Below are positions 722-15,490 of a DNA stretch of 41,396 bases, piece by piece. The translations under genes and the position numbers were made by a program. The stretch lies in the IMG/VR virus record IMGVR_UViG_3300025872_002429, positions 1-41,396 of that record. The stretch is one strand, 5' to 3'. This DNA comes from a virus. How positions within the stretch are numbered: the stretch's first letter is position 1; every line of letters starts with the position of its first letter. The notes beneath the pieces were generated by a model. The model had not been told where the DNA came from. It did no database searches and was given only the letters and a program-made list of their open reading frames with translations.

Positions 722-1690
722 ATGGATTTTGTTGATGTTAAATACCTCAATTTGATTTCTTCTAGATTTCAAAAGTTTAAAAAGGTTAAGCATAACCTCT
801 ATAATTTTCGTTGTCCAATTTGTGGAGATTCGCAAAAAAATAAAAATAAAGCAAGAGGATATTTGTATCAAGTAAAAAATAATACAAACTTTAAGTGTCA
901 TAATTGTGGACTCAATATATCCTTCAATAACTTTTTAAAGCAGATTGATACTACAATTCACAAACAGTATATTTTTGAGAAATTTAAAGAGGGACATTCT
1001 GGTAAAAACTTTACTGTAGAGAAACCAGAATTTAAATTTGAAACTCCAAATTTCAATCCTAAACTAGATTTGCCAAAAGCATCAGAAAATCTAAACGCAA
1101 AGAAATATCTTGAAAGTAGAAAATTAAACTCAAATAACTATTATTACACTGAAAAATTTAAGGAGTGGACTAACTCTCTTCAACAAACATTCGACAGTGT
1201 GGATAAAGATGAACCAAGGATTATTATTCCTTTGTTCTATCAAAATAAGTTAGTCGGATTTCAGGGAAGATCACTTGGTCCCAGCAAAGTAAAGTATATT
1301 ACTATAATGCTTGATGATGACGCACCAAAAATCTACGGTCTTGATAAAATACAAAAAGACAAAACTGTTTATATCACAGAAGGTCCATTTGACTCCTACT
1401 TTGTTCGCAACGCGATTGCTTTGTGTGGAGCTGATGGTGATGTTAGTCAGTTCGGTATTAGTGATTTTGTTTGGATTTATGATAACGAACCACGTAATTC
1501 AGAAATCCACAATAGAATTTCAAAAGTCATTGATCGTGGAGAAAAAGTAGTTATCTGGCCAAATACAATAAAAGAAAAAGACATTAATGAAATGATATTA
1601 TCTGGACTAAATGTACAGTCCGTGATAGAATCTAATACTTATTCTGGATTAGAAGCAAAACTTAAGTTTACTACTTGGAAGAAAATATGA
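722..1690 (+). CDS. DNA primase (T4 gp61-like)
   Basis: A 322-residue phage primase that should make RNA primers for lagging-strand synthesis together with the replicative helicase (T4 gp41). An N-terminal zinc-binding module is visible as CPIC (31-34) and CHNC (59-62). The C-terminal half carries a TOPRIM-like core: VYITEGPFDS with Glu220, then WIYDNE (251-256) as the acidic DxD-like motif. Length and domain order fit T4-like gp61. The stop codon overlaps the nrdA start (ATGA at 1687), implying translational coupling of replication and nucleotide supply genes. Confidence 0.85.
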   Translation: MDFVDVKYLNLISSRFQKFKKVKHNLYNFRCPICGDSQKNKNKARGYLYQVKNNTNFKCHNCGLNISFNNFLKQIDTTIHKQYIFEKFKEGHSGKNFTVEKPEFKFETPNFNPKLDLPKASENLNAKKYLESRKLNSNNYYYTEKFKEWTNSLQQTFDSVDKDEPRIIIPLFYQNKLVGFQGRSLGPSKVKYITIMLDDDAPKIYGLDKIQKDKTVYITEGPFDSYFVRNAIALCGADGDVSQFGISDFVWIYDNEPRNSEIHNRISKVIDRGEKVVIWPNTIKEKDINEMILSGLNVQSVIESNTYSGLEAKLKFTTWKKI

Positions 1691-3387
1691 GCAACGGAAC
1701 AAAAGTCATTAAAAGAAACGGTCGTATTGAATCACTTGACCTTGAAAAGATGCATATAATGGTTGAAGAAGCATGTAGAAGTCTTGCAGGGGTTTCCGCA
1801 AGTCAAGTTGAAATGACTTCTGGCATTCAATTTTATGATGGAATTACAACCGCAGAAATTCAAGAAATCCTAATTCGCTCTGCTTCAGATTTGATTGATT
1901 TGGATCATCCAAACTATCAATATGTTGCAGCCCGCCTACTTCTTTTTGCAGTTCGTAAGCAACTTTATGGAAAGATGAAGGAACTTCCTCATCTTGAGCA
2001 GCATATTTACACTTGCGTAAATGCTGAAGTGTATGATAACGATATTTACAACAAATATTCAAAAGAAGAAATTGATAAAGCCAATTCATATATTGATCAT
2101 GACCGCGACTATTTGTTCACTTATGCGGGCTTACGTCAGGTCGTTGACAAGTACCTTGTGCAGGACAGAAGTTCTGGTGGGGTATATGAAACTCCTCAGT
2201 TCATGTATATGATGATTGCTCTGACAATCTTCGCAGAGTATCCAAAAGAAACAAGAATGTCATATGTAAAGAGGTATTATGACGCAATCTCCAAACACAA
2301 AATCAACATCCCAACTCCCATCATGGCAGGAGTGCGAACGCCACTTAGACAATTTGCTAGTTGTGTTCTTGTTGATGTTGATGACACCCTCGATTCTATC
2401 TTTAGCAGTGATATGGCTATTGGTAGATACGTTGCACAGAGGGCGGGAATCGGCATCAACGCTGGTAGAATCCGTGGCATCAACAGTAAAATCAGAGGGG
2501 GAGAAGTTCAACATACGGGTGTTGTACCATTTCTCAAGAAGTTTGAAGCAACTGTCAGATGTTGCACGCAAAATGGCATACGAGGTGGATCCGCGACAGT
2601 CCACTTCCCAATTTGGCACCAAGAAATAGAAGACATTTTAGTTCTTAAGAATAACAAGGGAACGGAAGATAATCGTGTCCGTAAACTTGATTATTCTATC
2701 CAAATCAGTAAGTTGTTCTATGAAAGATTTATTCAAGACGGTGAGATCACGCTTTTCTCCCCACATGATGTACCTGGACTTTATGATTCTTTCGGACTCT
2801 CTACTTTTGATGATCTCTACTGTTCATATGAGAAAGATCCGTCCATTCCGAAAAAGACTCTTAAGGCACAAGAACTTATTCTTAACCTTCTCAAAGAACG
2901 TGCAGAAACGGGTCGTATCTACCTTATGAATATCGACCACTGCAATTCTCACTCTTCTTTTAAAGATAAAGTGAATATGAGTAATCTATGTGTTGCTGGT
3001 GATACAAAAATTTTTGTTGAGGTTGATTTGGGAAAACCTGATGTTTTTGACTTATGCGAATCAATTGCTACTGATTATGTTTCATTAATGTCTAATGTAT
3101 CTTTTACTATTAAAATTGAAGATTTGCAAAAATTGATTGATAATGGAGTTAAAATTGAAAATATAAAAGTTGCTTCTTATAGTTTTGAGGATAATTTCTT
3201 TTCTATACAACCAATTACTGCTTTTGCACAAACTTCACCAAAAGCAAAGGTAATGAAAATTACTGACGAAGAAAGCGGTAAAAGTATTGTGGTAACACCA
3301 GATCATAAAATATTCACAAAAAATCGTGGATATGTAATGGCAAAAGATCTAACTGAAACTGACGAATTAATGATACTTGACATATAA
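1687..3387 (+). CDS. nrdA: Ribonucleotide reductase alpha, N-terminal part fused to split-intein N-half
   Basis: Residues 1-434 are the N-extein of class Ia ribonucleotide reductase large subunit: an ATP-cone (KVIKRNGR at the start), then the reductase barrel with the redox Cys in RQFASCVLV. The frame then runs into an intein N-domain of 132 residues starting at Cys435 (base 2989; CVAGDTKIF). It carries a block-B type TPDHKIFT and ends in ETDELMILDI with a stop. The fusion point lies after SNL, so the catalytic SNLC-E motif is split. The start at 1687 (MSNGTK) is preferred over an in-frame ATG at 1675 because it gives an ATGA overlap with the primase stop. The partner half begins at 4136; trans-splicing should give a 766-residue enzyme, close to E. 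coli NrdA (761). Confidence 0.92.
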   Translation: MSNGTKVIKRNGRIESLDLEKMHIMVEEACRSLAGVSASQVEMTSGIQFYDGITTAEIQEILIRSASDLIDLDHPNYQYVAARLLLFAVRKQLYGKMKELPHLEQHIYTCVNAEVYDNDIYNKYSKEEIDKANSYIDHDRDYLFTYAGLRQVVDKYLVQDRSSGGVYETPQFMYMMIALTIFAEYPKETRMSYVKRYYDAISKHKINIPTPIMAGVRTPLRQFASCVLVDVDDTLDSIFSSDMAIGRYVAQRAGIGINAGRIRGINSKIRGGEVQHTGVVPFLKKFEATVRCCTQNGIRGGSATVHFPIWHQEIEDILVLKNNKGTEDNRVRKLDYSIQISKLFYERFIQDGEITLFSPHDVPGLYDSFGLSTFDDLYCSYEKDPSIPKKTLKAQELILNLLKERAETGRIYLMNIDHCNSHSSFKDKVNMSNLCVAGDTKIFVEVDLGKPDVFDLCESIATDYVSLMSNVSFTIKIEDLQKLIDNGVKIENIKVASYSFEDNFFSIQPITAFAQTSPKAKVMKITDEESGKSIVVTPDHKIFTKNRGYVMAKDLTETDELMILDI

Positions 3388-3392: not shown

Positions 3393-3446
3393 ATAGGAAG
3401 TGTAATGTCTGTATTTTATAAATAGTTATGAGATTACACTTCCTAT
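3393..3446 (+). promoter_or_regulatory. Late promoter enclosed in a 14-bp perfect hairpin before the first GIY-YIG gene
   Basis: ATAGGAAGTGTAAT (3393-3406) and ATTACACTTCCTAT (3433-3446) are perfect inverted repeats. The 26-nt loop contains TATAAATA (3417-3424), the exact T4 late promoter element. Late transcription should start near 3430, after the 5' arm. Read-through RNA from nrdA would contain the full stem, ending 1 nt before the ATG at 3448. This predicts translation of the endonuclease only from late RNA, as known for T4 I-TevI. Confidence 0.75.
3430..3443 (+). repeat. 14-bp copy of the nrdA C-extein junction sequence
   Basis: GAGATTACACTTCC occurs here and again at 4241-4254, where it encodes the EITLP of the C-extein just after the intein splice site. 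An 11-bp inverted copy lies at 3396-3406. The repeats flank the GIY-YIG gene and could be an insertion scar or an endonuclease target remnant. Confidence 0.7.
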
Positions 3447-3447
3447 A

Positions 3448-4143
3448 ATGAAAACATATATTGTTTATAAAATTACCAATAAAAAAAACGGAAAACCTTA
3501 CATAGGAAAAACAGAATACTCTTTGGAGCATCGTTGGTCTCGTCATTTATCTTCGGCAAGAAATGGTTCTAAATTTAGATTTCATTCTGCAATTAGAAAA
3601 TATGGAGAAGATTGTTGGGACTTATCTGTGATTGAAACTTACCAAACTGAAGATGAAAACTTTATTAATGAAAAAGAAACTCACTTTATCAAACTCTTTG
3701 AAAGTGATAGTAAAGGTTATAATGCCACTTCAGGAGGAACTGGTGGTTGGATGCTTCCAAGATGCTCACAGGAGGTTCAGGAAGAGTGGAGAAATGGTAT
3801 TTCCATAAGAACTACTGGTTATAATAATCCAAACCATTCTGGTTATAGTGATGAACAATTAATTGATTTTGGAATGAAGTTTATCAACAAATATAAATTT
3901 ATTCCTGGATTAAAAAGATTAATTAAATTCTGCCAAAAGGAATTGAATGTAGAGTTTCCTAAAAGTTTTTCTAAAAATAGATTTGGAGGAAAAAGAACAA
4001 ATTATACTAAAATTCTTGAAGAAAGAAGTGGTTTAAAATTTAATCCAAATCATAGGACTTTAGAAGAAAGAAAAAATCTTGCCGAAAAGGCATCTGTAAA
4101 TTCAACTATTATGTGGCAAAACAGGAGAAACAAAAATGCTTAA
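3448..4143 (+). CDS. GIY-YIG homing endonuclease inside the fractured nrdA
   Basis: A 231-residue protein with a complete N-terminal GIY-YIG nuclease core: YIVYKIT (4-10), YIGKT (18-22), the conserved Arg in HRW (Arg29), Glu in INEKET (75-77) and YNATSGG (91-97). The C-terminal part is basic and presumably binds DNA. It sits between the two halves of the split-intein nrdA and overlaps the IntC start by 8 bases. This matches the published fractured-gene arrangement, in which a free-standing homing endonuclease lies between split-intein halves. Expression is probably late, controlled by the hairpin/late promoter just upstream. Confidence 0.88.
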   Translation: MKTYIVYKITNKKNGKPYIGKTEYSLEHRWSRHLSSARNGSKFRFHSAIRKYGEDCWDLSVIETYQTEDENFINEKETHFIKLFESDSKGYNATSGGTGGWMLPRCSQEVQEEWRNGISIRTTGYNNPNHSGYSDEQLIDFGMKFINKYKFIPGLKRLIKFCQKELNVEFPKSFSKNRFGGKRTNYTKILEERSGLKFNPNHRTLEERKNLAEKASVNSTIMWQNRRNKNA

Positions 4144-5233
4144 GATTGAATACTTAGAAGAAGAAATTCCAGTTTATGATATTACAGTAGAGGATACTCA
4201 TAATTTCTTTGCAAATGATATTTTAGTTCATAATTGCCAAGAGATTACACTTCCGACCGATCCTATTCAACATATCGATGACAATATTGGAGAGATTGCT
4301 CTTTGTATTCTTTCTGCTATTAATGTTGGGAAAGTAAAGTCGGATGAAGAACTAGAAGATCTTTGTGATCTTTCTGTTCGTGGACTTGAAGAACTCATTG
4401 ATTATCAGAAGTATCCTGTAAAGGCAGCAGAGATTGCCACAAAGGCACGTAGATCTCTTGGAGTAGGTTTTATTGGTCTTGCTCATTATCTTGCTAAACT
4501 TGGATTCAATTACGACTCTCAGGAGGCATGGGATGCCGTAAATGGACTGTCTGAATCATTCCAGTATTATCTTCTGAAAGCATCCAATCAACTTGCTAAG
4601 GAAAAAGGACATTGTGAATACTTTGGTCGTACTAAGTATTCTGATGGTATTCTTCCAATTGATACTTATAAAACTGACGTAGACGAAATTTCTTCAATTC
4701 CATTACAACATGATTGGGAAAATCTTAGAGCATCCATCCTGGCTCACGGTCTCAGGCACTCAACACTGTCCGCACAAATGCCTTCAGAGAGCAGTTCCGT
4801 TGTGTCAAATGCAACCAATGGAATCGAACCTCCAAGGGATTACTTGTCCGTTAAAAAATCGAAGAAAGGTCCACTTAAGCAGATTGTCCCTCAATATGGA
4901 AGCCTTAAAAACCATTACACTCTTCTCTGGGAAATGGATTCCAATCGTGGTTATATTAATGTTGTTGCTATGATGCAAAAATATTTTGACCAAGCAATTT
5001 CTGGAAATTGGTCATACAATCCAGAAAATTATGCCAATAATGAAGTTCCTGTCTCAGTAATGGCACGGGATTTATTATCCACATATCGTTATGGTTGGAA
5101 AACAAGTTATTATCAAAACACATATGATATTAAAACTGATGAGGTAGTAGAAGAACCAAAACAAGACCTTCAATCACTTCTTCAAGAACTTTCTGGTGCC
5201 GAAGAGGAAGATTGCGAAAGTTGTAAAATTTGA
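4136..5233 (+). CDS. nrdA: Split-intein C-half fused to ribonucleotide reductase alpha C-terminal part
   Basis: Residues 1-33 are an intein C-domain (blocks F/G: VYDITVEDTHNFFANDILV then HN) ending at Asn33. The C-extein starts at Cys34 (base 4235), which is the catalytic Cys of the class I reductase motif SNLC-E, equivalent to E. coli Cys439. The 332-residue extein continues with GEIALC (second redox Cys), LPIDTYK, SNATNGIEPPR, YYQNT, and the C-terminal redox tail CESC near the end. Trans-splicing with the 1687-3387 product is needed for an active enzyme. Start is the first ATG, overlapping the endonuclease gene. Confidence 0.92.
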   Translation: MLKIEYLEEEIPVYDITVEDTHNFFANDILVHNCQEITLPTDPIQHIDDNIGEIALCILSAINVGKVKSDEELEDLCDLSVRGLEELIDYQKYPVKAAEIATKARRSLGVGFIGLAHYLAKLGFNYDSQEAWDAVNGLSESFQYYLLKASNQLAKEKGHCEYFGRTKYSDGILPIDTYKTDVDEISSIPLQHDWENLRASILAHGLRHSTLSAQMPSESSSVVSNATNGIEPPRDYLSVKKSKKGPLKQIVPQYGSLKNHYTLLWEMDSNRGYINVVAMMQKYFDQAISGNWSYNPENYANNEVPVSVMARDLLSTYRYGWKTSYYQNTYDIKTDEVVEEPKQDLQSLLQELSGAEEEDCESCKI

Positions 5234-5242: not shown

Positions 5243-5276
5243 AAAGACCTGTTATTATAAATAGTAATAGGTCTTT
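5243..5276 (+). promoter_or_regulatory. Late promoter within a hairpin before the second GIY-YIG gene
   Basis: AAAGACCT (5243-5250) pairs with AGGTCTTT (5269-5276), and the intervening bases extend the stem with A-U and G-U pairs. TATAAATA (5256-5263) lies at the apex. The predicted late start near 5269 is exactly the first base of the 3' arm, so late RNA lacks the 5' arm. The next ATG is at 5287. Confidence 0.75.
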
Positions 5277-5286: not shown

Positions 5287-5964
5287 ATGGAAGGTCGCAT
5301 TTATAAAATAACTAATCAAGTTAATGGTAAGTTTTATGTTGGTATGACCAGAAAGAAATTGAAATACAGATTTAATAATCATTGTTATGATGCATTAATT
5401 AGAAACTCAAATTCTTATTTCCATAAAGCAATAAGAAAATATGGTAAAGAAAATTTTATCATTGAAGAAGTTGAGGTATGTGAAAAAAATTTACCAGATA
5501 GAGAAGTATTTTGGATTTCTAAATTAAAACCAGATTACAACCAAACTATTGGTGGAGATAATGGAATTCTTGGATTTAGGCATACTGAAGAAACTAAAAA
5601 CTTTCTTTCTGAAAAAAGAAAGGGAAAATATACTGGAGAAAAAAATCCTTTTTATGGGCAGCATCATACACAAAAAACTAAAGACAAACTAAGTAGAATG
5701 AGAAAAGGGCAACCATCTCCTTGTGGATTTGCTGGAAAATCACATAAAGAAGAAAGTAAATCTAAAACTTCTCAAACTCTTAGAAATAATCCAAATATAA
5801 AAAGAACCAAAGTATTTCAGTATGATATTGAAGGAAACTTTTTAAGAGAGTTTCAATCTATTAGTGATGCTGCTAAATTTGTAGGAACAACTCCTTCTAA
5901 TATCAAATATACTTGTGAAGGAAAATTTAAACACTGCAAAGGATACAAGTGGAGTTATGAATAA
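5287..5964 (+). CDS. GIY-YIG homing endonuclease with NUMOD DNA-binding repeats
   Basis: A 225-residue protein. The nuclease core has RIYKITN (4-10), FYVGMT (16-21), Arg in KYRFN (Arg29), a Glu near 73 and YNQTIGG (84-90). It is followed by NUMOD3-like segments (HTEETKNFLSEKRKGK and KNPFYGQHHTQKTK) and a C-terminal NUMOD1-like helix-turn-helix (FQYDIEGNFLREF, SISDAAKF, GYKW). This order is typical of phage group-I-intron or free-standing homing enzymes. It directly follows the nrdA end and overlaps the next endonuclease gene. The likely target is nrdA/nrdB of related phages, by inference from position. Confidence 0.88.
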   Translation: MEGRIYKITNQVNGKFYVGMTRKKLKYRFNNHCYDALIRNSNSYFHKAIRKYGKENFIIEEVEVCEKNLPDREVFWISKLKPDYNQTIGGDNGILGFRHTEETKNFLSEKRKGKYTGEKNPFYGQHHTQKTKDKLSRMRKGQPSPCGFAGKSHKEESKSKTSQTLRNNPNIKRTKVFQYDIEGNFLREFQSISDAAKFVGTTPSNIKYTCEGKFKHCKGYKWSYE

Positions 5965-7054
5965 TTTTTATGTTTATTCTTATCTTCGTGAAGATAAGAG
6001 TCCATATTATATTGGAAAAGGTAGAGATAATAGATGCTTTGTAAAGGGGAAAAAGGAAAGTGTTAGTCCTCCAAGAGATAAAAACAGAATTAAAATAATT
6101 AAAAAAAATCTAACAGAACAAGAAGCATTTGAATTAGAAAAACTTTATATCCTAATGTTTGGTAGAAAAGATTTGGGGACGGGTATTCTTCGCAATCTTA
6201 CTAATGGTGGTGATGGTGTAAGTGGATATATTGTTAGTGAAGGTGTTAGAGAAGCAAGAAGAAGGAATGGAAAAGTAATTGGAAACAAGAATGCACAATT
6301 AAAAAGAGGAGTTTGTTCTCTCACAAAAGAACAACGAGTAAAAAATGGAAATTATGTAAAAGAAAATGGACTTGGGATATTTTCACAAACCCCAGAACAA
6401 AAAAAAGAAAATGGTAAAAAAGCAGGACAAAAAGCAAAAGAACTTGGTCTTGGAATATTTGCTATGACTGCTGATGAAAGAAGTGCTGCTGGAAAAATAG
6501 GTGGTGCTAAAAACAGAGATAATAAAACTGGGATTTGTGGATTATCTTATGAGGAAAGGAGTGATTGGGGAAAAAAATGTAAAAAAGAAGGTATTGGAAT
6601 ATTCTCACAAGAATACTTAAAAGTTCGTAGTCAAATTTTAAGTGAACAAAATTCTGGTGAAAACAATCCTATGTATGGTAAAACCCATTCACCAGAAACA
6701 AGAGAAAAAATTAGAAAAAAAGCACTAGAGAGAAAAGATAAAAAAATATACAAATTGAAAAATCCAAATGGAGAAATAATTATCTTTGAAAACTTTAAAG
6801 AATTTTGTGATAAAAATGATTTAAATTCAGGAGGAGTTGGTAATGTTTTGCGTGGAAAATATATTCAACATAAGGGATGGACTTTACCAGAAACAATTCT
6901 AGAGAAAAAAATTTACACGATTAAAAGTCCAGATGGAAAAATTTATACCTTTGATAGTATAAAACAATTTTCAAAAGAACATAATATTAAATGTGGTCTT
7001 GATGCAGTTTTGCGTGGTGTAAGAAAATCTTGTTATGGGTGGACAAAACCATAA
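5957..7054 (+). CDS. Large GIY-YIG-type homing endonuclease with repeated DNA-binding modules
   Basis: About 365 residues from the ATG at 5957 (preceded by GGAG); an in-frame upstream ATG at 5915 lies inside the previous gene and is less likely. The N-terminus FYVYSYL then YYIGKG is a divergent GIY-YIG core. The middle has at least three imperfect repeats with the pattern GLGIFSQTPEQKKENGKKAG, GLGIFAMTADERSAAGKIGG and GICGLSYEERSDWGKK. A NUMOD3-like KNPMYGKTHSPETREKIR-type element (here NNPMYGKTHSPETREK) and two similar C-terminal helix-turn-helix units (each ending in GW) follow. It overlaps the preceding endonuclease by 8 bases and is probably translated from the same late RNA. Confidence 0.82.
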   Translation: MNNFYVYSYLREDKSPYYIGKGRDNRCFVKGKKESVSPPRDKNRIKIIKKNLTEQEAFELEKLYILMFGRKDLGTGILRNLTNGGDGVSGYIVSEGVREARRRNGKVIGNKNAQLKRGVCSLTKEQRVKNGNYVKENGLGIFSQTPEQKKENGKKAGQKAKELGLGIFAMTADERSAAGKIGGAKNRDNKTGICGLSYEERSDWGKKCKKEGIGIFSQEYLKVRSQILSEQNSGENNPMYGKTHSPETREKIRKKALERKDKKIYKLKNPNGEIIIFENFKEFCDKNDLNSGGVGNVLRGKYIQHKGWTLPETILEKKIYTIKSPDGKIYTFDSIKQFSKEHNIKCGLDAVLRGVRKSCYGWTKP

Positions 7055-8481: not shown

Positions 8482-8640
8482 ATGTCCAAAAATAATTTTA
8501 ATAAAGATGAATTTAGAGTTCGGGTGCTAAAGTTAAAAAACGAATTATATCACGATCCAAATTGGTACTCTAATCCAAAGAATCTAGCAGATAAATATCT
8601 GAACAAGGTTCTTGAAATTATTGATGAGTATAGATATTGA
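8482..8640 (+). CDS. Small conserved cyanophage hypothetical protein
   Basis: A 52-residue, mostly helical, charged protein (MSKNNFNKDEFRVRV, then DPNWYSNPKNLADKYLNKVL). The NWYSNP..LA.KYL pattern seems familiar from T4-like cyanophage genomes, from memory. It begins directly after the terminator T-run and overlaps the following endonuclease-like gene by 17 bases. Function unknown. Confidence 0.65.
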   Translation: MSKNNFNKDEFRVRVLKLKNELYHDPNWYSNPKNLADKYLNKVLEIIDEYRY

Positions 8641-9067
8641 CTATGAAAATCCTTGGATCTATAATGGAAATCCTTTTACCAGTGCTGACATTGGAGACCA
8701 TTATGGATTTGTTTATTTAATTGAAAATAAACTGAATGGTAGGAAGTACATAGGTAGAAAATACTTATGGCAATTCAGAACTCCAAAAGGTAAGAAACGA
8801 AAAGTAAAATCAGAATCTAATTGGAAGGATTACTATGGGTCTTGTCCGGAACTTAAAGAAGACATTGACAAATTGGGCAGAGAAAATTTTAGTCGAACTA
8901 TCTTATCATTACATAAAACAAAGGGCAAAACAAACTACGAAGAGACACGACAACTATTTGTCCATAATGTCCTCACAGAAGGACTTGACGACGGAACTCC
9001 AAGATGGTACAATTCACAAGTCCTCAACAGATATTTCCGAAAAGATTATTATGGAAACAACGACTGA
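8624..9067 (+). CDS. Putative GIY-YIG-family endonuclease
   Basis: About 147 residues from the ATG at 8624; an upstream in-frame TTG at 8612 is unlikely. After a short N-terminal segment (YENPWIYNGNPF) comes YGFVYLIENKLNGRKYIGRK, a GIY-YIG-like first and second motif, then WKDYYGS and a Glu-containing YEETRQLF. It lacks separate DNA-binding repeats, unlike the homing enzymes upstream, so it may be a resident T4-like phage endonuclease. A GATAAATA with a small palindrome (8588-8601) lies just upstream inside the previous gene. Confidence 0.7.
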   Translation: MSIDIDYENPWIYNGNPFTSADIGDHYGFVYLIENKLNGRKYIGRKYLWQFRTPKGKKRKVKSESNWKDYYGSCPELKEDIDKLGRENFSRTILSLHKTKGKTNYEETRQLFVHNVLTEGLDDGTPRWYNSQVLNRYFRKDYYGNND

Positions 9068-9224
9068 AGATATCGTCGCACATGTGAGGAGTTGGTCTCT
9101 TGACCGTGCTGCAGATATGAGTATTGATAAAGAGGATGCTCGTGCTATTCTTGCAGAGTTTTATGAGTGGATTGAACCAGAAGATGACGAACTGGAAATT
9201 GTTTCTCTGGAACCACAAGATTGA
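9051..9224 (+). CDS. Small acidic hypothetical protein
   Basis: A 57-residue acidic protein from the ATG at 9051 (METTTEDIVAHV, DAARAIL-like helix, tail EPEDDELEIVSLEPQD). A longer in-frame extension to 8835 lies wholly within the upstream gene in another frame and is rejected. It looks like a conserved short cyanophage protein of unknown function. A promoter begins inside its last codons. Confidence 0.65.
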   Translation: METTTEDIVAHVRSWSLDRAADMSIDKEDARAILAEFYEWIEPEDDELEIVSLEPQD

Positions 9225-9249
9225 CAAAAACTAAATAAAAACTTATAAT
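9220..9249 (+). promoter_or_regulatory. Sigma70-type promoter
   Basis: TTGACA (9220-9225) and a perfect TATAAT (9244-9249) with 18-bp spacing. RNA would start about 9257, immediately at the hairpin that follows, so this may be an attenuated promoter for the lysin gene. Confidence 0.6.
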
Positions 9250-9257
9250 GTTAAAAT

Positions 9258-9280
9258 CCCTGTTATGAGCAGGGTTTTTT
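9258..9280 (+). terminator. Intrinsic terminator/attenuator
   Basis: CCCTG (9258-9262) and CAGGG (9270-9274) form a stem with a 7-nt loop and six T follow. It probably ends transcription of the small genes upstream. Confidence 0.7.
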
Positions 9281-9309
9281 ATTATGAGACTTTGAGGATT
9301 GATTTAGAG

Positions 9310-9357
9310 CCGTGGGCGCTGCCCCTGAGAAGGGGAACCTCTCCTTTGCCTATACGG
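9310..9357 (+). ncRNA. Candidate structured leader upstream of lysin
   Basis: CCGT (9310-9313) can pair with ACGG (9354-9357), GGC (9315-9317) with GCC (9348-9350), and an inner CCCCT-GAGA-AGGGG hairpin (9322-9335) carries a GNRA tetraloop. This GC-rich element contrasts with the AT-rich surroundings and lies 22 bases before the lysin ATG. Family not identified. Confidence 0.35.
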
Positions 9358-9379
9358 ATGTAGAGTTCTATTAATTTTA

Positions 9380-10006
9380 ATGCAAAACTGCTTTACTGTA
9401 GCCCTCTTGCCTCTTCTGGCAACGGTTACAACCACAACGGCAACACTGCCATCATCTGCTATTGCTCCTTCTTATTCCATTATTAAGGAGTTTGAAACAG
9501 AGAAGACAGCAATCCGCGAGGTTGCTCCCGAAAAGCCAAAAGAGAAAAGGCTAATTTGTAAAGGGTGTAATGAACATGAGAATACAGCCCTGGCATATTT
9601 CCAGGATCTTGGTATTAAAGACAGAAACGCCCTTGCTACCATCATGGGTAACATTCGTCAGGAATCAACTTTTATTCCTAACATCTGTGAAGGTGGTAGC
9701 AGAACCAGTTGGAATAACTGCGGACGCGGTTATGGACTGATTCAATGGACATCTGCCGATCGTTATTATGGATTGGGTGATTTTGCTAGAAAGACTGGTG
9801 GTAATCCATCATCTATTCACACGCAACTTGGTTATCTAACAACTGAGGTTCAATGGCAACGTATCGCAGATAGAATGAAAGTTCCTGGTAAATCTATCGA
9901 TCGTTACATGGACTATGCGTATAGTTGGATTGGTTGGGGACATCATGGTGCCCGCACTTCGTATGCCTATGATTATGCTAACCGACTGATCACGGTAGAA
10001 GTTTGA
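9380..10006 (+). CDS. Secreted tail-lysin-like (lysozyme-fold) protein
   Basis: A 208-residue protein. The N-terminus MQNCFTVALLPLLATVTTTT with a following SSA resembles a signal peptide or membrane anchor. After a charged linker and a CKGC pair (60-63), residues 66-208 match the phage tail lysin type: LAYFQDLGIKDRNALATIMG, then NIRQEST with the likely catalytic Glu95, YGLIQWT (118-124) and R..GL..FA. It probably degrades peptidoglycan at entry or lysis. It follows a structured leader and precedes a terminator at 10039. The signal-like N-terminus argues for action in the periplasm, but a virion role cannot be excluded. Confidence 0.75.
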   Translation: MQNCFTVALLPLLATVTTTTATLPSSAIAPSYSIIKEFETEKTAIREVAPEKPKEKRLICKGCNEHENTALAYFQDLGIKDRNALATIMGNIRQESTFIPNICEGGSRTSWNNCGRGYGLIQWTSADRYYGLGDFARKTGGNPSSIHTQLGYLTTEVQWQRIADRMKVPGKSIDRYMDYAYSWIGWGHHGARTSYAYDYANRLITVEV

Positions 10007-10029
10007 TAAAATAGAATATACAATAAAAT

Positions 10030-10068
10030 AATAAATATAGGGGAGGTCTGCAGCACTCCCCTTTTTTA
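10030..10068 (+). promoter_or_regulatory. Late promoter overlapping an intrinsic terminator
   Basis: AATAAATA (10030-10037) is followed by a terminator hairpin AGGGGAG (10039-10045) / CTCCCCT (10056-10062) plus six T. The predicted late start (about 10043) lies inside the 5' arm. Upstream RNA would stop here, while late RNA cannot form the full stem and should read into the gene at 10074. Confidence 0.6.
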
Positions 10069-10073
10069 GTAGA

Positions 10074-11717
10074 ATGAAGACATTTAAACATTTCATATCA
10101 GAAGCATACCTTATTGTAGAAAAGCGTGGTGGAGAACCAAAGTATAGTGATGAACATGCAAATATAAATTTCTATAACCATTTGGTATCCTCTCCAGAAG
10201 TACGAGAGTTAATACGTAAGAAAGATTTTGATGGTGTTAATCAAGTGATTGCACAAGAATTGGAAAGTGCAAAAACTGATCCAGAGCACCCACTACATTT
10301 CAATAACGCATCAGACGAAGGATTTTCTGGTAAAAAGAAAACTGCAGGACATGAAAATGCCTATTATTCAGAAATAGAAAGAGCAGTTCCTGGATTTTTA
10401 AGTTTAGTTCAAAGTAAGAAAGGTGGAAATATTGCATCAAAGGGATGGGTTGGTAGAGTTTCTGGTGGAGAACATGAAGCATCCAAACCATCATGGAAAG
10501 GAAACGTAAAAGGTCAAGGAAGATTTGATTACGTATTTTCTGATCCAGAAGACCCTAAGAAACAGCACCGTGTAAGCGGAAAAGATTATCGTGGTTCTCA
10601 GGCAGGTTCTGCTCAAGCAGACCAGGCAACTGCAACCCTTGAGAGAGGAGTACAAGTTGCTGCACAGCAACAAGTTAAGAGTATCCTGGCAAATAAACCA
10701 AAGAAGAAGGCAGGAGAAACTGATCAAGAATATAAAGAAAGAGTAGCACAGTTAAAGGTAGATGCCAGAAAAAAAGGAAAAGAAATAATTTCAACAAGTC
10801 AAGAAACTCTTAATAGAATTAAAGAGTTGATGTCTTCTACCAAAGGAATGTCTCCCGAACAACAAAAGGATGTTTATACTCAAGTTCAAGCAGAGATTGA
10901 TGGGTTAGAGAAAAAAGTCCCTGGAGTTCAACGTGCTGCTGGACAAGAGATGGTAAAAGGCACAGGACAATTCACTAAGAGTAAAACTGCTCAATCTATG
11001 TGGACCACTGGTGGTAAAGGTGCTTCCTTTAGAGATCCTAGACAGCAATCTGTTGGATTGAGAGCAAGAGCTGGGAAAGGTAAGGGTAGAGAGATGGCAG
11101 TTGCTGGAGATATTCAAGCAGCAGCTAAAGAAAAGGCAGCACAGAAAACAAGACAATCATCCTTTGCTCTTTTCAATCGTCAAGCACAAGCAGCTCATGC
11201 AAAAACTGCAGCAGAACTAGAGCAACAAACGGTACAAACTGCAAATGATCTAGAAGCAGCAAAAGCATCTGCTGCTGATGCAACTAGAGTAACAAAACCA
11301 GATGGAACTCCAGTTCCTAGAAAGAATGCGTTCTTCCTTCAAAATAATCCTGTTGCGGCACAACAGCACGCAGATAAGCAAGCAGCAGCTGCACAAAACG
11401 TTCAGGCAGCTCAAGATGCTCATGATAATGCCGTAACAACGCACCAGACCCACCTGAGCACCCCTCCAACGCCCGTCACGCCAGAGAAACCAAAAGCAGC
11501 ACAACCAACTCAACCAGTGCCTGTTCCCGCCCCACAACCCACACAAGCACCTACAGCAGTACCACAACCCACACAAGCACCTACAGCATCAGCATCAGCA
11601 CCAACACAACCACAGCAAACGACACAACCAGCACCACAAGAAGATCCAAAAGAAAAGAGAAAAAGAGCATTGGAACAAAGGATGGCAGCGGCAGCACAAA
11701 GAAATAATTTAGAGTAA
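10074..11717 (+). CDS. Putative internal capsid protein with T4-type capsid-targeting N-terminus
   Basis: A 547-residue Lys/Gln/Ala-rich protein. The first residues MKTFKHFISEA closely resemble the capsid-targeting sequence of T4 internal proteins (MKTYQEFIAEA). IVE at 14-16 fits the gp21 prohead protease rule (Leu/Ile-X-Glu), so cleavage would leave KRGGEPKY at the mature N-terminus. Residues 20-190 may be a folded domain of unknown type; 200-460 is helical and highly charged; 460-530 is a Pro/Thr/Gln repeat tail. A late promoter directly precedes it. Inference: it is packaged and injected with DNA. No enzymatic motif is recognised. Confidence 0.7.
   Translation: MKTFKHFISEAYLIVEKRGGEPKYSDEHANINFYNHLVSSPEVRELIRKKDFDGVNQVIAQELESAKTDPEHPLHFNNASDEGFSGKKKTAGHENAYYSEIERAVPGFLSLVQSKKGGNIASKGWVGRVSGGEHEASKPSWKGNVKGQGRFDYVFSDPEDPKKQHRVSGKDYRGSQAGSAQADQATATLERGVQVAAQQQVKSILANKPKKKAGETDQEYKERVAQLKVDARKKGKEIISTSQETLNRIKELMSSTKGMSPEQQKDVYTQVQAEIDGLEKKVPGVQRAAGQEMVKGTGQFTKSKTAQSMWTTGGKGASFRDPRQQSVGLRARAGKGKGREMAVAGDIQAAAKEKAAQKTRQSSFALFNRQAQAAHAKTAAELEQQTVQTANDLEAAKASAADATRVTKPDGTPVPRKNAFFLQNNPVAAQQHADKQAAAAQNVQAAQDAHDNAVTTHQTHLSTPPTPVTPEKPKAAQPTQPVPVPAPQPTQAPTAVPQPTQAPTASASAPTQPQQTTQPAPQEDPKEKRKRALEQRMAAAAQRNNLE
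11532..11588 (+). repeat. Two 27-bp direct repeats, period 30 bp
   Basis: The same 27 bases occur at 11532-11558 and 11562-11588 and encode the repeated PQPTQAPTA units in the low-complexity tail of the putative internal capsid protein. Confidence 0.85.
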
Positions 11718-11720
11718 TGT

Positions 11721-11757
11721 AATAAATACAGAGGAGTGTCGCTACTCCTCTTTTTTT
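11721..11757 (+). promoter_or_regulatory. Late promoter overlapping an intrinsic terminator
   Basis: AATAAATA (11721-11728) precedes a strong terminator: AGAGGAGT (11730-11737) / ACTCCTCT (11744-11751) with a T-run to 11757. The predicted late start near 11734 is inside the 5' arm, as at 10030. The next gene begins right after the T-run at 11758. Confidence 0.6.
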
Positions 11758-12168
11758 ATGTTTAATTTTAACTTCGGAAAGAAGAGACCAGATCAGAAGC
11801 AAATAATCATTATAAGCGTCATACTTAGTGGTATTGTAGCGACACTCTCTCAATGCACTGGAGCGCCTCAGGAGCGCCTCTGGGACCTTCTAGATGAGGT
11901 TCAGAGGACTTTGTTCCCACAGACCATAATCAATGATGTTCTGCTTAAGGATCCAGGAATTGTTAAAAGAAGAGTTGAGCGTGACGTTGATAAAGCAATC
12001 AGAGATTATGAACGCTTGACAGGGGACTCTGGAACACCTAGAATACCTTTGCCCCGGTTGATAGAGAAGGAGCTCGATACTTCTAAGTGTTATACTGAAG
12101 AGTGTAAAAAACTTGGAGGAGAAATGAGACTTTGTTCACCATGGGTTGACACCTGTAAAGGTGAGTGA
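11758..12168 (+). CDS. Putative membrane or lipoprotein, cyanophage hypothetical
   Basis: A 136-residue protein with a basic N-terminus (GKKRPDQKQ) and one hydrophobic segment (IIIISVILSGIVATLSQC) ending in a Cys at a lipobox-like site. The rest is a charged helical domain (VKRRVERDVDKAIRDYERL) and a Cys-containing tail (CYTEECKKLGGEMRLCSPWVDTC, four Cys that could pair). The topology suggests anchorage in the inner membrane with a periplasmic domain. The specific function is unknown. Confidence 0.65.
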   Translation: MFNFNFGKKRPDQKQIIIISVILSGIVATLSQCTGAPQERLWDLLDEVQRTLFPQTIINDVLLKDPGIVKRRVERDVDKAIRDYERLTGDSGTPRIPLPRLIEKELDTSKCYTEECKKLGGEMRLCSPWVDTCKGE

Positions 12169-12174
12169 TAGATT
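12146..12174 (+). promoter_or_regulatory. Sigma70-type promoter for tRNA-Ser/tRNA-Ile
   Basis: TTGACA (12146-12151) and TAGATT (12169-12174), 17-bp spacing. RNA start near 12181, five bases before the tRNA. Confidence 0.6.
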
Positions 12175-12185
12175 AAGATTCTTGT

Positions 12186-12276
12186 GGAGGATTGGCAGAG
12201 TGGTTTAATGCAGGGGATTGCTAATCCCCCGATACATGATACAATGTATCCGTTGGTTCAAATCCAACATCCTCCG
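12186..12276 (+). tRNA. tRNA-Ser (GCT)
   Basis: The acceptor GGAGGAT pairs with ATCCTCC, the anticodon stem GGGGA/TCCCC holds loop TTGCTAA (anticodon GCT), there is a long class II variable arm, and the T-loop is TTCAAAT. CCA is not encoded. It would decode AGC/AGU. Confidence 0.92.
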
Positions 12277-12279
12277 TAT

Positions 12280-12351
12280 GGGAGATTAGCTCAGTGGTAG
12301 AGCAATGTGCTGATAACGCAGAGGTCGGTGGTTCAAATCCACCATTTCCCA
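12280..12351 (+). tRNA. tRNA-Ile (GAT)
   Basis: The acceptor GGGAGAT/ATTTCCC has one G-U pair, the D-arm is TAGCTCAGTGGTAGAGC, the anticodon loop is CTGATAA (GAT), and the T-arm is GTGG/CCAC with TTCAAAT. It is spaced three bases from tRNA-Ser and probably cotranscribed. Confidence 0.9.
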
Positions 12352-12352
12352 C

Positions 12353-12381
12353 TTGACAACCCATATCTAGTTTGATATGAT
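12353..12381 (+). promoter_or_regulatory. Sigma70-type promoter for tRNA-Arg
   Basis: TTGACA (12353-12358) and TATGAT (12376-12381) with 17-bp spacing, followed by TGTCTCAT. An almost identical cassette occurs at 13389 before tRNA-Gly. Confidence 0.7.
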
Positions 12382-12393
12382 TGTCTCATGAGC

Positions 12394-12461
12394 GGTGAGG
12401 GTCCAAACCTCATATAAGTCTCACCCCTCCCATGCCTCTCATAGAAGCACAAACAGGGAGG
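12394..12461 (+). ncRNA. Structured leader before tRNA-Arg
   Basis: GGTGAG (12394-12399) can pair with CTCACC (12420-12425) or alternatively TGAGG (12396-12400) with CCTCA (12408-12412). CCTCCC (12426-12431) pairs with GGGAGG (12456-12461). It lies between a promoter and a tRNA and may be a processing leader. Family unknown. Confidence 0.3.
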
Positions 12462-12467
12462 TCTCTT

Positions 12468-12540
12468 GGGGCAGCAGCATGACGGATCATGCACCATCCT
12501 TCTAAGATGTAAGATGGGGGTTCAAATCCCTCCTGCCCTG
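12468..12540 (+). tRNA. tRNA-Arg (TCT)
   Basis: The acceptor GGGGCAG pairs with CTGCCCT (terminal G-U), the anticodon loop CTTCTAA gives TCT, and the T-arm GGGTTCAAATCCC is intact. It would read AGA/AGG, useful for the AT-rich phage codons in this window. Confidence 0.88.
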
Positions 12541-12552
12541 TTTAATAGTTAA

Positions 12553-12571
12553 ATAATATAAATAATATTAT
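12553..12571 (+). promoter_or_regulatory. Late promoter in a small hairpin before the HNH gene
   Basis: ATAATAT (12553-12559) and ATATTAT (12565-12571) form a 7-bp stem, and TATAAATA (12557-12564) covers the stem and loop. A late start near 12570 would exclude the hairpin. The HNH ATG is at 12588. Confidence 0.55.
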
Positions 12572-12587
12572 ATTTCCTCTGGTCTAT

Positions 12588-13148
12588 ATGGATAAACAAA
12601 AGTTAATAGAATACATTGAAAGTGGAATGTCAACTACTCAAATATCCAAATTAGAAAATAAAGGAAAGACAACTATCAGGTATTGGTTGGATAAGTATGA
12701 ATTAAAAACTAAAAATAAATCCTTCAAAGAAGGATATGTAGAAAATCCAATATTAAGAATTGATGGAAAACCAATTCAAAGTTGTGCTAAGTGTGGAGTT
12801 TCATTAAATGAAGAAACTGGATATTGGAGAGAAAGCAAACAATTATGGCAAGCAAATTGTAAAAAATGCCAAAACAGATATTCAGTAGAGAGGTGGAAAA
12901 ATAATAAAAAGAGAGCAGTTGAATATAAGGGTGGTGAGTGTGAAAGATGTGGATACAATAAATGTATTGATGCATTGGAGTTTCATCATATTGACCCAAC
13001 TCAAAAAGATAAAAATTTTGGTAATATTAAAATAAGAAAATGGGAAGACCAGAAAAAAGAACTTGATAAATGTATATGTGTATGTGCCAATTGTCATAGG
13101 GAGATACACGCAGAACTTAGACTTGACACCATTCCAGAACTGGTGTAA
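12588..13148 (+). CDS. HNH homing endonuclease in the tRNA cluster
   Basis: A 186-residue protein. The N-terminal 40 residues look like a helix-turn-helix (STTQISKLENKGKTTIRYWL). Two Cys pairs follow (CAKC near 65, CKKC near 95), then the HNH core: CERCGYN, LEFHHIDP and CVCANCHREIH, giving a zinc-stabilised HNH nuclease. It is inserted between tRNA-Arg and tRNA-Leu and driven by its own late promoter. It is most likely a free-standing homing endonuclease; the target is unknown. Confidence 0.88.
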   Translation: MDKQKLIEYIESGMSTTQISKLENKGKTTIRYWLDKYELKTKNKSFKEGYVENPILRIDGKPIQSCAKCGVSLNEETGYWRESKQLWQANCKKCQNRYSVERWKNNKKRAVEYKGGECERCGYNKCIDALEFHHIDPTQKDKNFGNIKIRKWEDQKKELDKCICVCANCHREIHAELRLDTIPELV

Positions 13149-13167
13149 TATATAAAAACGATAGAGG

Positions 13168-13299
13168 GTAAGTCTCTGTTATATCCTTATGAGATATATC
13201 ACGCTTACTCCATCAAATCGTAGGAAGTGCAATCCCTCTCGCTGGTTATGCTGGATGATGGAAAAGGTGATTCTGTCCGCACATAGAGATCCCTCCTAC
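13168..13299 (+). ncRNA. Structured non-tRNA segment between HNH gene and tRNA-Leu
   Basis: Two domains can be drawn. First, GTAAG (13168-13172) / CTTAC (13204-13208) encloses TGTTATATC (13177-13185) / GATATATCA (13193-13201) with one mismatch. Second, GTAGG (13220-13224) / CCTAC (13295-13299) encloses GTGC (13227-13230) / GCAC (13279-13282). An ORF here overlaps tRNA-Leu and is not credible. Candidate ncRNA or tRNA precursor leader; unassigned family. Confidence 0.35.
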
Positions 13300-13305
13300 C
13301 ACCAA

Positions 13306-13387
13306 GTCGTTGTGGCGGAATTGGTAGACGCGCTGGGTTTAGGTTCCAGTAGATTAATCTGTGAAGGTTCAAGTCCTTTCAACGACA
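13306..13387 (+). tRNA. tRNA-Leu (TAG)
   Basis: The acceptor GTCGTTG pairs with CAACGAC, the D-arm is TGGCGGAATTGGTAGACGC, the anticodon stem CTGGG/TCCAG carries loop TTTAGGT (TAG), and there is a class II variable arm and a TTCAAGT T-loop. It would decode CUN codons. Confidence 0.92.
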
Positions 13388-13388
13388 C

Positions 13389-13417
13389 TTGACAATCAAA
13401 CTTAAATAGTTTATGAT
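13389..13417 (+). promoter_or_regulatory. Sigma70-type promoter for tRNA-Gly
   Basis: TTGACA (13389-13394), 17-bp spacer, TATGAT (13412-13417), then TGTCTCAT. It has the same layout as the promoter at 12353 and RNA would start a few bases before tRNA-Gly. Confidence 0.7.
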
Positions 13418-13426
13418 TGTCTCATT

Positions 13427-13498
13427 GCGAAAGTAACTCAACGGTAGAGTCCCTGCCTTCCAAGCAGGTTGTTGCGAGTTCGAATCTCGTCTTTCGCT
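13427..13498 (+). tRNA. tRNA-Gly (TCC)
   Basis: The acceptor GCGAAAG pairs with CTTTCGC, the anticodon stem CCTGC/GCAGG carries loop CTTCCAA (TCC), and the T-arm is GCGAGTTCGAATCTCGT. The discriminator is U. Confidence 0.92.
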
Positions 13499-13500
13499 CT

Positions 13501-13606
13501 TGGTAGTCCTTAGCGATTAACTAGGTAGACGCCAAAGGAAGTTAAGTCAAAGAATCGAGACAAGCAGACAATGCCCTTTGAACTGGTGTAAGTCCAGTAA
13601 CTTCCT
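13501..13606 (+). ncRNA. Three-way-junction structured RNA between tRNA-Gly and tRNA-Asn
   Basis: A perfect 9-bp outer stem AGGAAGTTA (13536-13544) / TAACTTCCT (13598-13606) encloses two perfect hairpins: TCAAAG (13547-13552) / CTTTGA (13576-13581) and ACTGG (13582-13586) / CCAGT (13594-13598). The preceding TTGG (13500-13503) can pair with CCAA (13532-13535). This is too regular for chance and is not a tRNA. Cyanophage manA-type RNAs are reported in tRNA clusters, but I cannot confirm a family match. Confidence 0.5.
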
Positions 13607-13611
13607 CATAA

Positions 13612-13684
13612 TGGGGTGTAGCTCAGCGGTAGTAGCGGGATGCTGTTAACATCTAGGTCGCAGGTTCGATCCCTGCCGCCCCAG
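13612..13684 (+). tRNA. tRNA-Asn (GTT)
   Basis: The acceptor TGGGGTG pairs with CGCCCCA (one G-U), the D-arm is GCTCAGCGGTAGTAGC, the anticodon loop is CTGTTAA (GTT), and the T-arm is GCAGGTTCGATCCCTGC. Confidence 0.9.
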
Positions 13685-13842
13685 TTGGAAGGACTGGAAA
13701 TGTCTGGGACTTCCTACTAAATCCTAGGGGATTCTTCTAGGTCGGGGGATTGATCACCCCTGCTCGTCTGCCCGATGACCCAGCAAGTGAAGGGACCTGA
13801 TTTACACTCAGACATCGACGGGAGCGTTACCTGTATCGGGCA
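13685..13842 (+). ncRNA. Large structured RNA with predicted pseudoknot
   Basis: The segment between tRNA-Asn and the Dps-like gene has no ORF but many perfect helices: GGAAG (13687-13691) / CTTCC (13710-13714), CCTAG (13723-13727) / CTAGG (13737-13741), GGGG (13745-13748) / CCCC (13757-13760), ATGTCTG (13700-13706) / CAGACAT (13809-13815), and TGCCCGAT (13769-13776) / ATCGGGCA (13835-13842). The last two interleave, giving a pseudoknot. It could be a riboswitch-like leader for the gene at 13879 or a free ncRNA. The wcaG and manA phage RNA families are candidates by context only. Confidence 0.55.
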
Positions 13843-13847
13843 TACTT

Positions 13848-13855
13848 AATAAATA
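13848..13855 (+). promoter_or_regulatory. Candidate late promoter for the Dps-like gene
   Basis: AATAAATA, with predicted start near 13861, lies 18 bases before the ATG at 13879 and directly after the structured RNA. Confidence 0.45.
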
Positions 13856-13878
13856 AAAATAAAATAAAAAAAAATACC

Positions 13879-14313
13879 ATGGAAAAACTATACAAAATTT
13901 TATCAGATACTCAAGCTGCTTTATTTGTTCTTTTCCAAAAAACTTGGGTATATCATTGGCATATTACTGGACCTGATTTTTATCAAGTTCATACTCTGTT
14001 TGGAGATCAATATACTGCTCTCTTTGAGGAGGTAGATAGAGTATCTGAGCATATTCGTTTTCTTGGCGCAAAACCAATCAGTGCTCTTTCTAGAGTTTCC
14101 GAAGTTTCAAGAATTTCAGAAGCAAAGAGTGGTCTTTCTGAAATGCAAATGATCAAAGATCTTCTTAGTGATCATGAGACAATTGTTAAGATGTTTGCTG
14201 AAGCTGCAGTAATTGCTGAAGAACTAAAATCAAGAGGAACTGTAAATATGCTTGATGATTTAAACGAAGCACACGGTAAGTATATTTGGTTCTTAAGATC
14301 ATTTACAGAATGA
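13879..14313 (+). CDS. Dps/ferritin-like protein
   Basis: A 144-residue helical protein of the Dps family, which oxidises and stores iron and can protect DNA. The ferroxidase ligands are in place: WHITGPDFYQVH supplies both His, and EEVDRVSEHIR supplies the Asp and Glu. The length is slightly short for Dps (about 160) because the flexible N-terminal DNA-binding tail is absent, so iron or peroxide detoxification is more likely than DNA condensation. It has a late-type promoter and follows a large structured RNA. Its presence suggests handling of oxidative or iron stress in the infected phototroph. Confidence 0.85.
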   Translation: MEKLYKILSDTQAALFVLFQKTWVYHWHITGPDFYQVHTLFGDQYTALFEEVDRVSEHIRFLGAKPISALSRVSEVSRISEAKSGLSEMQMIKDLLSDHETIVKMFAEAAVIAEELKSRGTVNMLDDLNEAHGKYIWFLRSFTE

Positions 14314-14325
14314 GGATGAATACCA

Positions 14326-14574
14326 ATGATTTCTATAAGATGCAAAGATTGCAATAAAGAATTAACAGGACATCCTACTAAAACTATAACTTGTGGATGT
14401 CCAAACATGTCAACAATACGTGGAGATAAGATTTCTGCTGTTGACTTATCTCGTATTGTTATGTTAAACTCCATGCAGAAGGAACAAAAAAATGTTCTGA
14501 CCTCTCAAGATATTGCTTGGCAGGAAGCACGTAGACAACGTAAAGTACGTCGTTTAGATTTTGAAGTCCGTTGA
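14326..14574 (+). CDS. Small zinc-ribbon-like phage protein
   Basis: An 82-residue protein with CKDC (6-9) and a CGC (23-25) that could form a small zinc site, then a basic C-terminal helix (WQEARRQRKVRRLDFEVR). It starts 12 bases after the Dps-like gene with GAGG upstream, so it is probably cotranscribed. I take it to be a conserved cyanophage protein of unknown role, perhaps nucleic-acid binding. Confidence 0.7.
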   Translation: MISIRCKDCNKELTGHPTKTITCGCPNMSTIRGDKISAVDLSRIVMLNSMQKEQKNVLTSQDIAWQEARRQRKVRRLDFEVR

Positions 14575-14583
14575 GGACTTATT

Positions 14584-14667
14584 GGAAAGGTGTCCGAGTG
14601 GTTTAAGGAAACGGTCTTGAAAACCGTCGTGTTAATAGCACCGTGGGTTCGAATCCCACCCTTTCCG
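14584..14667 (+). tRNA. tRNA-Ser (TGA)
   Basis: The acceptor GGAAAGG pairs with CCTTTCC, the anticodon stem ACGGT/ACCGT carries loop CTTGAAA (TGA), there is a class II variable arm and a TTCGAAT T-loop. It begins 9 bases after the preceding gene and would decode UCN. Confidence 0.92.
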
Positions 14668-14729
14668 TTTTAAGAAATACAACAAATTTAACAATCTCTT
14701 CAGCAGTGTTAAGATATCAACACAAAATG

Positions 14730-14762
14730 TTGACGATGAAAGTTCTCTGATTAGTATATAAT
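14730..14762 (+). promoter_or_regulatory. Probable sigma70-type promoter
   Basis: TTGACG (14730-14735) with TAGTAT (14752-14757, 16-bp spacing), partly overlapping a perfect TATAAT (14757-14762). It lies 20 bases upstream of the small gene at 14783. A small hairpin CAACA/TGTTG (14719-14733) overlaps the -35 box. Confidence 0.45.
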
Positions 14763-14782
14763 AGTACTATCATTCAAAATTT

Positions 14783-15398: not shown

Positions 15399-15480
15399 CA
15401 AAATATATACTGCATTGACAGTATTTGGAATTATTGGATTATTTGTTATATGGGGATTAAACCACGCATATCCACAATAG
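15391..15480 (+). CDS. 29-residue membrane micro-protein
   Basis: The ATG at 15391 overlaps the previous stop (ATGAGTAA). The product is almost all one hydrophobic helix (ALTVFGIIGLFVIWGL) with short polar ends. A GGAG site for talC follows. Tiny photosystem-like or membrane peptides are common in cyanophages; the role here is not recognisable. Confidence 0.6.
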   Translation: MSNKIYTALTVFGIIGLFVIWGLNHAYPQ

Positions 15481-15490
15481 GAGTTACTGC

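What the first reader, a model, noticed from the sequence alone, without database searches (positions are those of the whole stretch)
3393..3446. Hairpin/late-promoter switch in front of the intein-associated endonuclease
A perfect 14-bp inverted repeat encloses an exact TATAAATA. Read-through RNA from nrdA would fold the whole stem next to the start codon, whereas late RNA should start at about 3430, past the 5' arm. This is the logic shown for T4 I-TevI but here attached to a fractured split-intein gene.
Basis: partly seen in the sequence, partly recalled or inferred. Interest (0 to 1): 0.8.

Follow-up and report, generated by a model that had tools for sequence, protein, structure and literature searches.

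The report
Self-regulating promoter hairpin of homing endonuclease
A selfish DNA-cutting gene lodged inside a virus's split intein carries its own switch: a late promoter inside a hairpin whose two arms copy the DNA site the enzyme probably recognises, so the hairpin may keep the gene silent early and let the enzyme shut itself off later.

Summary
A perfect 14-bp inverted repeat (3393-3406/3433-3446) encloses TATAAATA (3417-3424) and ends one base before the ATG of a GIY-YIG endonuclease gene (HEG) between the halves of a split NrdA intein. Shuffled windows almost never contain such a repeat. Read-through RNA folds it; RNA starting at 3430 cannot.

The element precedes this HEG in every relative whose upstream DNA is held: 93% identical while adjoining intein DNA is 67%. 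Its promoter varies only as NATAAATA, the cyanophage late motif, except beside one broken HEG. The I-TevI-like reading is supported as anatomy, with one correction: the HEG has no Shine-Dalgarno (0 of 78), so the stem would mask the start codon.

They are the two best 20-base matches (16/20 each) to that site in the window, and top-3 in about three quarters of 46 loci. They lack the CNNNG that most empty nrdA sites carry. This is the pattern of the I-TevI operator (15/20), doubled into the stem.

Best reading: one element for late timing, early silence and autorepression. No transcript or binding data exist.

The parts
1687..3387 (+). nrdA N-terminal part plus N-terminal intein half (IntN starts at 2989)
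   Evidence: Pfam Ribonuc_red_lgN/lgC, ATP-cone and a weak Intein_splicing match; stop codon 3385-3387, 5 nt before the hairpin
3393..3406 (+). 5' arm of the inverted repeat; its reverse complement (with flanks) is a 16/20 match to the nrdA site +5..+24
   Evidence: conserved in relatives
3417..3424 (+). predicted T4/cyanophage-type late promoter TATAAATA (NATAAATA in relatives), predicted +1 about 3430
   Evidence: NATAAATA motif PMC2984593; spacing PMC2988020
3430..3446 (+). 3' arm with its inner flank and predicted late leader; 3430-3443 is an exact copy of 4241-4254; proposed operator
3448..4143 (+). GIY-YIG homing endonuclease gene (231 aa), catalytic domain closest to I-TevI, no Shine-Dalgarno
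   Evidence: Pfam GIY-YIG 1.3e-12; PDB 1mk0/1ln0 by sequence and by fold; no SD
4124..4138 (+). Shine-Dalgarno (AGGAG) and start codon of the downstream half-gene, lying inside the 3' end of the HEG
   Evidence: SD found in 78 of 78 loci
4136..5233 (+). C-terminal intein half (to 4234) plus nrdA C-terminal part
   Evidence: Pfam Intein_splicing (weak) and Ribonuc_red_lgC
4235..4258 (+). nrdA C-extein next to the intein insertion point; half of the proposed homing site (copied at 3430-3443 and, inverted, at 3396-3409)
5243..5276 (+). second hairpin with TATAAATA (5256-5263), in front of another GIY-YIG gene (5287-5964); same design, no homing-site copy found

Best explanation
The element is the self-contained 5' control region of a mobile GIY-YIG endonuclease cassette sitting in a split NrdA intein. 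(1) Early and middle read-through RNA from nrdA folds a 14-17 bp stem that ends one base before the SD-less HEG start codon, so the HEG is hardly translated, while the downstream NrdA half is translated from its own SD inside the end of the HEG. (2) Late in infection the gp55-type promoter in the loop starts RNA at about 3430, leaving out the 5' arm and freeing the start codon. (3) As DNA, the two arms are inverted copies of the nrdA sequence beside the intein insertion point, without the I-TevI-type cleavage motif; the endonuclease binds them without cutting and represses its own late promoter. Shown: anatomy, conservation, predicted fold, likeness to the nrdA site, SD distribution. Inferred: promoter use, translational block, protein binding, autorepression.
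For: Repeat far above chance; stem folds only when the 5' arm is present. The same element stands in front of the HEG in all loci whose upstream DNA is held, 93% identical on average versus 81% for the HEG and 67% for the adjoining IntN. In 27 distinct elements 96.3% of pair cells are paired and 3 pairs changed on both sides. The promoter varies as T/G/C-ATAAATA, fitting NATAAATA; it is lost (TATAACTA) in L090/L121, where the HEG frame is broken. The arms are the two best 20-mers in the window against the nrdA site, 16/20 each, when the site itself is excluded; median rank 1.5 (3' arm) and 2 (5' arm) of 9,000-17,000 in 46 distinct loci. CNNNG is absent from 30 of 31 elements, while 60 of 70 distinct empty nrdA sites have it across the insertion point. 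I-TevI precedent: operator with 15/20 identity over its late promoter, little cleavage for want of CXXXG, plus a read-through hairpin.
Against: No transcript, binding or cleavage data; no isolate in the phage collection carries a close relative of this HEG. The HEG's actual cleavage and binding site is inferred from the intein insertion point and from the arms themselves. In loci with divergent nrdA sites (L004, L005, L010, L013, L014) the arms do not match well. Absence of CNNNG in one element is not rare by chance (about 41%) and the elements are related. The paired changes are few and could come from quasi-palindrome correction. IntN ribosomes stop 3-5 nt before the 5' arm in most relatives and could partly melt the stem.
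Confidence: 0.6

Rival explanations
1. Only the T4-type late-promoter/RNA-hairpin switch is functional; the likeness of the arms to nrdA is a relic of how the cassette arose or a chance match.
For: A second HEG in the same contig (5287-5964) has its own conserved TATAAATA hairpin whose arms match nothing else in the window. The distance between the arms varies by up to 3 nt, which suits an RNA loop better than a phased pair of protein sites. Some arm changes leave G-U pairs.
Against: A 14-nt exact copy of the insertion-site sequence is the longest match of any 20-mer in the window (none of 41,169 others exceeds 12), and both arms rank first or second in most loci. Arm sequence, not only pairing, is conserved.
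Confidence: 0.25
2. Only the DNA operator is functional: the palindrome is a two-site operator around the late promoter and the RNA stem is a by-product of having two inverted sites.
For: Both arms keep the same sequence, and L012, L013 and L090 changed both arms together. There is no Shine-Dalgarno for a hairpin to hide.
Against: The stem ends exactly one base before the start codon and extends beyond the nrdA-like part (TAT/ATA pairs). The second HEG has a hairpin without a homing-site copy. I-TevI has both an operator and a hairpin.
Confidence: 0.1
3. The hairpin is a transcription terminator or RNA-processing signal for the nrdA N-half message.
For: It starts 3-5 nt after the IntN stop codon in most relatives.
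Against: No U tract follows (AATGAAAAC), and the C-half of the gene lies downstream on the same strand, so termination would cut off NrdA-C from early messages.
Confidence: 0.05

Closest known systems
T4 I-TevI control region in the td intron (late promoter, read-through hairpin, operator)
   Same: GIY-YIG endonuclease with an I-TevI-like catalytic domain inside a nucleotide-metabolism gene; late promoter just upstream; stem formed only by read-through RNA; homing-site-like sequence at the promoter without the cleavage motif (PMC2988022)
   Different: Host is a split intein, not a group I intron; no Shine-Dalgarno for the HEG; the homing-site copy is present twice, inverted, and forms the stem itself; binding and repression not tested here
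Aeh1 mobE, T4 segB, I-TevII and I-TevIII late-promoter hairpins
   Same: Homing endonuclease start region folded in long early RNA and freed in late RNA (PMC2988022)
   Different: The reviewed cases hide an RBS; mobE and segB are free-standing genes
Fractured genes with split inteins and an endonuclease gene between the halves (Dassa et al. 2009; cited in PMC3653736 and PMC10448857, original not readable here)
   Same: nrdA broken between intein halves with an endonuclease gene in the gap
   Different: The endonuclease here is GIY-YIG; the title of that work announces a new endonuclease family, and whether it described this GIY-YIG type or its control region could not be checked

Membership tests
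I-TevI-type late-promoter/hairpin-regulated homing endonuclease | GIY-YIG endonuclease related to I-TevI | tested here: met
   Pfam GIY-YIG 1.3e-12; PDB 1mk0 E 2.5e-6 by profile; best fold match 1mk0, prob 1.00, E 3.8e-3
I-TevI-type late-promoter/hairpin-regulated homing endonuclease | late promoter placed so that late RNA lacks the 5' arm | tested here: met
   TATAAATA 3417-3424, predicted +1 3430, 5' arm 3393-3409; sequence only, no RNA ends mapped
I-TevI-type late-promoter/hairpin-regulated homing endonuclease | stable stem only in read-through RNA | tested here: met
   predicted -24.7 versus -2.1 kcal/mol
I-TevI-type late-promoter/hairpin-regulated homing endonuclease | hairpin hides a consensus Shine-Dalgarno of the endonuclease | tested here: not met
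   no SD before the HEG in 78 of 78 loci; the stem reaches the start codon instead
I-TevI-type autorepressed endonuclease | operator resembling the homing site at the late promoter, lacking the cleavage motif | tested here: inconclusive
   16/20 on each arm, no CNNNG in the element; the true homing site and protein binding are not known
I-TevI-type autorepressed endonuclease | protein binds the operator and represses the promoter | not testable with these tools
   needs EMSA and reporter assays
Fractured split-intein gene with endonuclease | host gene broken between IntN and IntC with an endonuclease ORF in between | tested here: met
   contiguous HEG-less inteins in NrdA exist (L407, L395, L370, L399)
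Fractured split-intein gene with endonuclease | trans-splicing of the halves | not testable with these tools
   intein ends C...HN|C present in sequence; activity untested

The most novel reading that the evidence does not exclude
One 54-nt sequence serves three roles: a doubled operator copied from the enzyme's own homing site, a late promoter between the copies, and an RNA stem made of the same copies that silences early translation. Together with the SD for the next half-gene at its 3' end, this makes the HEG a portable cassette that can break an intein gene in two without losing NrdA.
Probability: 0.5. Interest if true: 0.72.

Novelty: new variant of a known kind. Interest (0 to 1): 0.6.

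Why it matters
If true, the three control layers found piecemeal for T4 I-TevI recur in uncultured cyanophage-like viruses and in an intein rather than an intron, and the operator and the hairpin are built from the same copied target sequence. It suggests how a homing endonuclease can split an intein gene in two without penalty: silent early, expressed late, self-limiting, and supplying the ribosome site for the broken host gene. It also gives a testable guess of the enzyme's recognition sequence (GARATTACACTTCC near a CTNTG cut site) from regulatory DNA alone.

Tried and rejected
Intrinsic terminator: no U tract after the stem. Upstream mini-ORFs (ATG 3406 and ATG 3428): not conserved in all relatives. 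Chance likeness of the arms to nrdA: rejected by whole-window and 46-locus ranking, though not for loci with divergent nrdA sites. Homing-site copy for the second HEG hairpin (5243-5276): none of the arm fragments searched recurs elsewhere in the window. RNA-only covariation proof: too few double changes, and G-U-compatible changes are not clearly in excess. Scan of bacterial and archaeal genome contigs: no relative. Dassa 2009 full text: not held. The pairwise 20-nt arm comparison printed was misaligned by one or two bases and was not used; the full scan in the same call was. AlphaFold model: only moderate (pLDDT 72); the C-terminal, presumably DNA-binding, domain has no clear solved match.

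Full report
Setting. The window is the whole of a 41,396-base virus record. It carries T4-like, cyanophage-like genes: nrdA exons match Synechococcus phages at about 73-80%. nrdA is split: N part plus IntN (1687-3387), a GIY-YIG endonuclease (3448-4143), and IntC plus C part (4136-5233). The endonuclease's nearest solved relative, by sequence and by fold, is the I-TevI catalytic domain; its C-terminal domain has no clear solved match.

Observation. The perfect 14-bp repeat and the TATAAATA are exactly as described. No other inverted repeat of that size with a short gap exists in the window, and shuffles give 0.017 per window. Predicted folding: -24.7 kcal/mol with the 5' arm, -2.1 without. The T4 spacing puts +1 at about 3430.

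Relatives. A scan of IMG/VR found 103 relatives of the endonuclease and kept 80. Those examined with flanking sequence lie in nrdA between intein halves, and those whose upstream DNA is held carry the element. Pattern scans found the element, in recognisable form, only in front of this gene. Mean identity to the window is 93% for the element, 81% for the HEG and 67% for the 300 bases of IntN before it, so the element belongs to the HEG. IntN ends 3-5 nt before the 5' arm in most relatives. The promoter reads T, G or C followed by ATAAATA, matching the NATAAATA late motif described for cyanomyoviruses (PMC2984593). In L090/L121 the HEG frame is broken and the promoter has become TATAACTA, while both arms changed together from GG/CC to TT/AA. 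Across 27 distinct elements 96.3% of pair cells are paired; three pairs show double changes. That supports a kept symmetry but does not separate RNA from DNA function.

The arms copy the nrdA site. GAGATTACACTTCC in and beside the 3' arm equals nrdA sequence starting 6 nt after the intein insertion point. Scanning both strands of the window with the 20-nt nrdA site (+5..+24), the two best hits other than the site itself are the two arms, 16/20 each; the next is 15/20 at 13219. In 46 distinct site/element combinations the arms have median ranks 1.5 and 2 among 9,000-17,000 positions, with top-3 ranks in 36 (3' arm) and 34 (5' arm); the clearest failures have divergent nrdA sites. GAGATTACACTTCC is itself a common natural allele in uninterrupted nrdA (7 of 80). 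Empty sites carry CTNTG, a CNNNG motif, across the insertion point in 60 of 70 distinct sequences, whereas 30 of 31 elements have no CNNNG; the exception is L090. This is what the review of T4 endonucleases describes for I-TevI: an operator 15/20 identical to the homing site over the late promoter, bound equally but cut about 100-fold less for want of CXXXG (PMC2988022).

Translation layout. In 78 of 78 loci the HEG lacks a Shine-Dalgarno, while the downstream IntC-NrdA gene has one (AGGAG or GGAG) inside the last codons of the HEG. Early read-through RNA could therefore make both NrdA halves while the stem blocks the HEG. This departs from I-TevI, where the stem hides an RBS.

Cassette history. 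Contiguous HEG-less inteins occur in NrdA (L407, L395, L370, L399), and L424 is a split intein without the HEG that retains a 5'-arm remnant next to the IntC SD. This fits a cassette of element, ORF and SD that entered a contiguous intein and can be lost again (inference).

A second case. The HEG between nrdA and nrdB (5287-5964) has its own TATAAATA hairpin, conserved with paired changes in about 60 loci examined, folding at z -5.1, but with no homing-site copy found. So the late-promoter hairpin recurs, and the site copies are special to the intein HEG.

Verdict. Hairpin plus late promoter: well supported as anatomy, function inferred from the T4 precedent. Operator: strong sequence support, untested biochemically. 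The combination is a new variant of the I-TevI scheme.

Noticed in passing
window 5243-5276 and 5287-5964; L154-L231: A second GIY-YIG HEG between nrdA and nrdB has its own conserved TATAAATA-containing hairpin with paired arm changes (GACC/GGTC to AACC/GGTT).
   Followed up: partly
window 4124-4138; 78 loci: The last HEG codons (often Arg-Arg, AGGAGA) are the Shine-Dalgarno of the downstream IntC-NrdA gene, tying host gene expression to the HEG's 3' end.
   Followed up: partly
L424:2818-3178: Split intein that lacks the HEG but keeps a 5'-arm remnant (ATAGGAAGTGTAATTTCTA) joined to the IntC SD.
   Followed up: partly
L407, L395, L370, L399, L412, L425: NrdA inteins without the HEG, contiguous in frame where translated: the apparent pre-insertion state.
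   Followed up: partly
L090:4265-4308 and L121: HEG with a broken frame, degenerate late promoter (TATAACTA) and co-changed, still perfectly paired arms.
   Followed up: partly
window 12426-12462: Rfam abiF RNA match (44.8 bits, gathering 37) inside the tRNA cluster, about 95 bases before a TATAAATA at 12557.
   Followed up: no
window 19268-19368: Rfam wcaG RNA match (90 bits).
   Followed up: no
window 5960-7054 and 8612-9067: Two more endonuclease-like genes: one with NUMOD3 and I-HmuI-like motifs, one SegE-type GIY-YIG.
   Followed up: no
window 13219 (- strand): Third-best match (15/20) to the nrdA insertion-site sequence, within the tRNA region.
   Followed up: no
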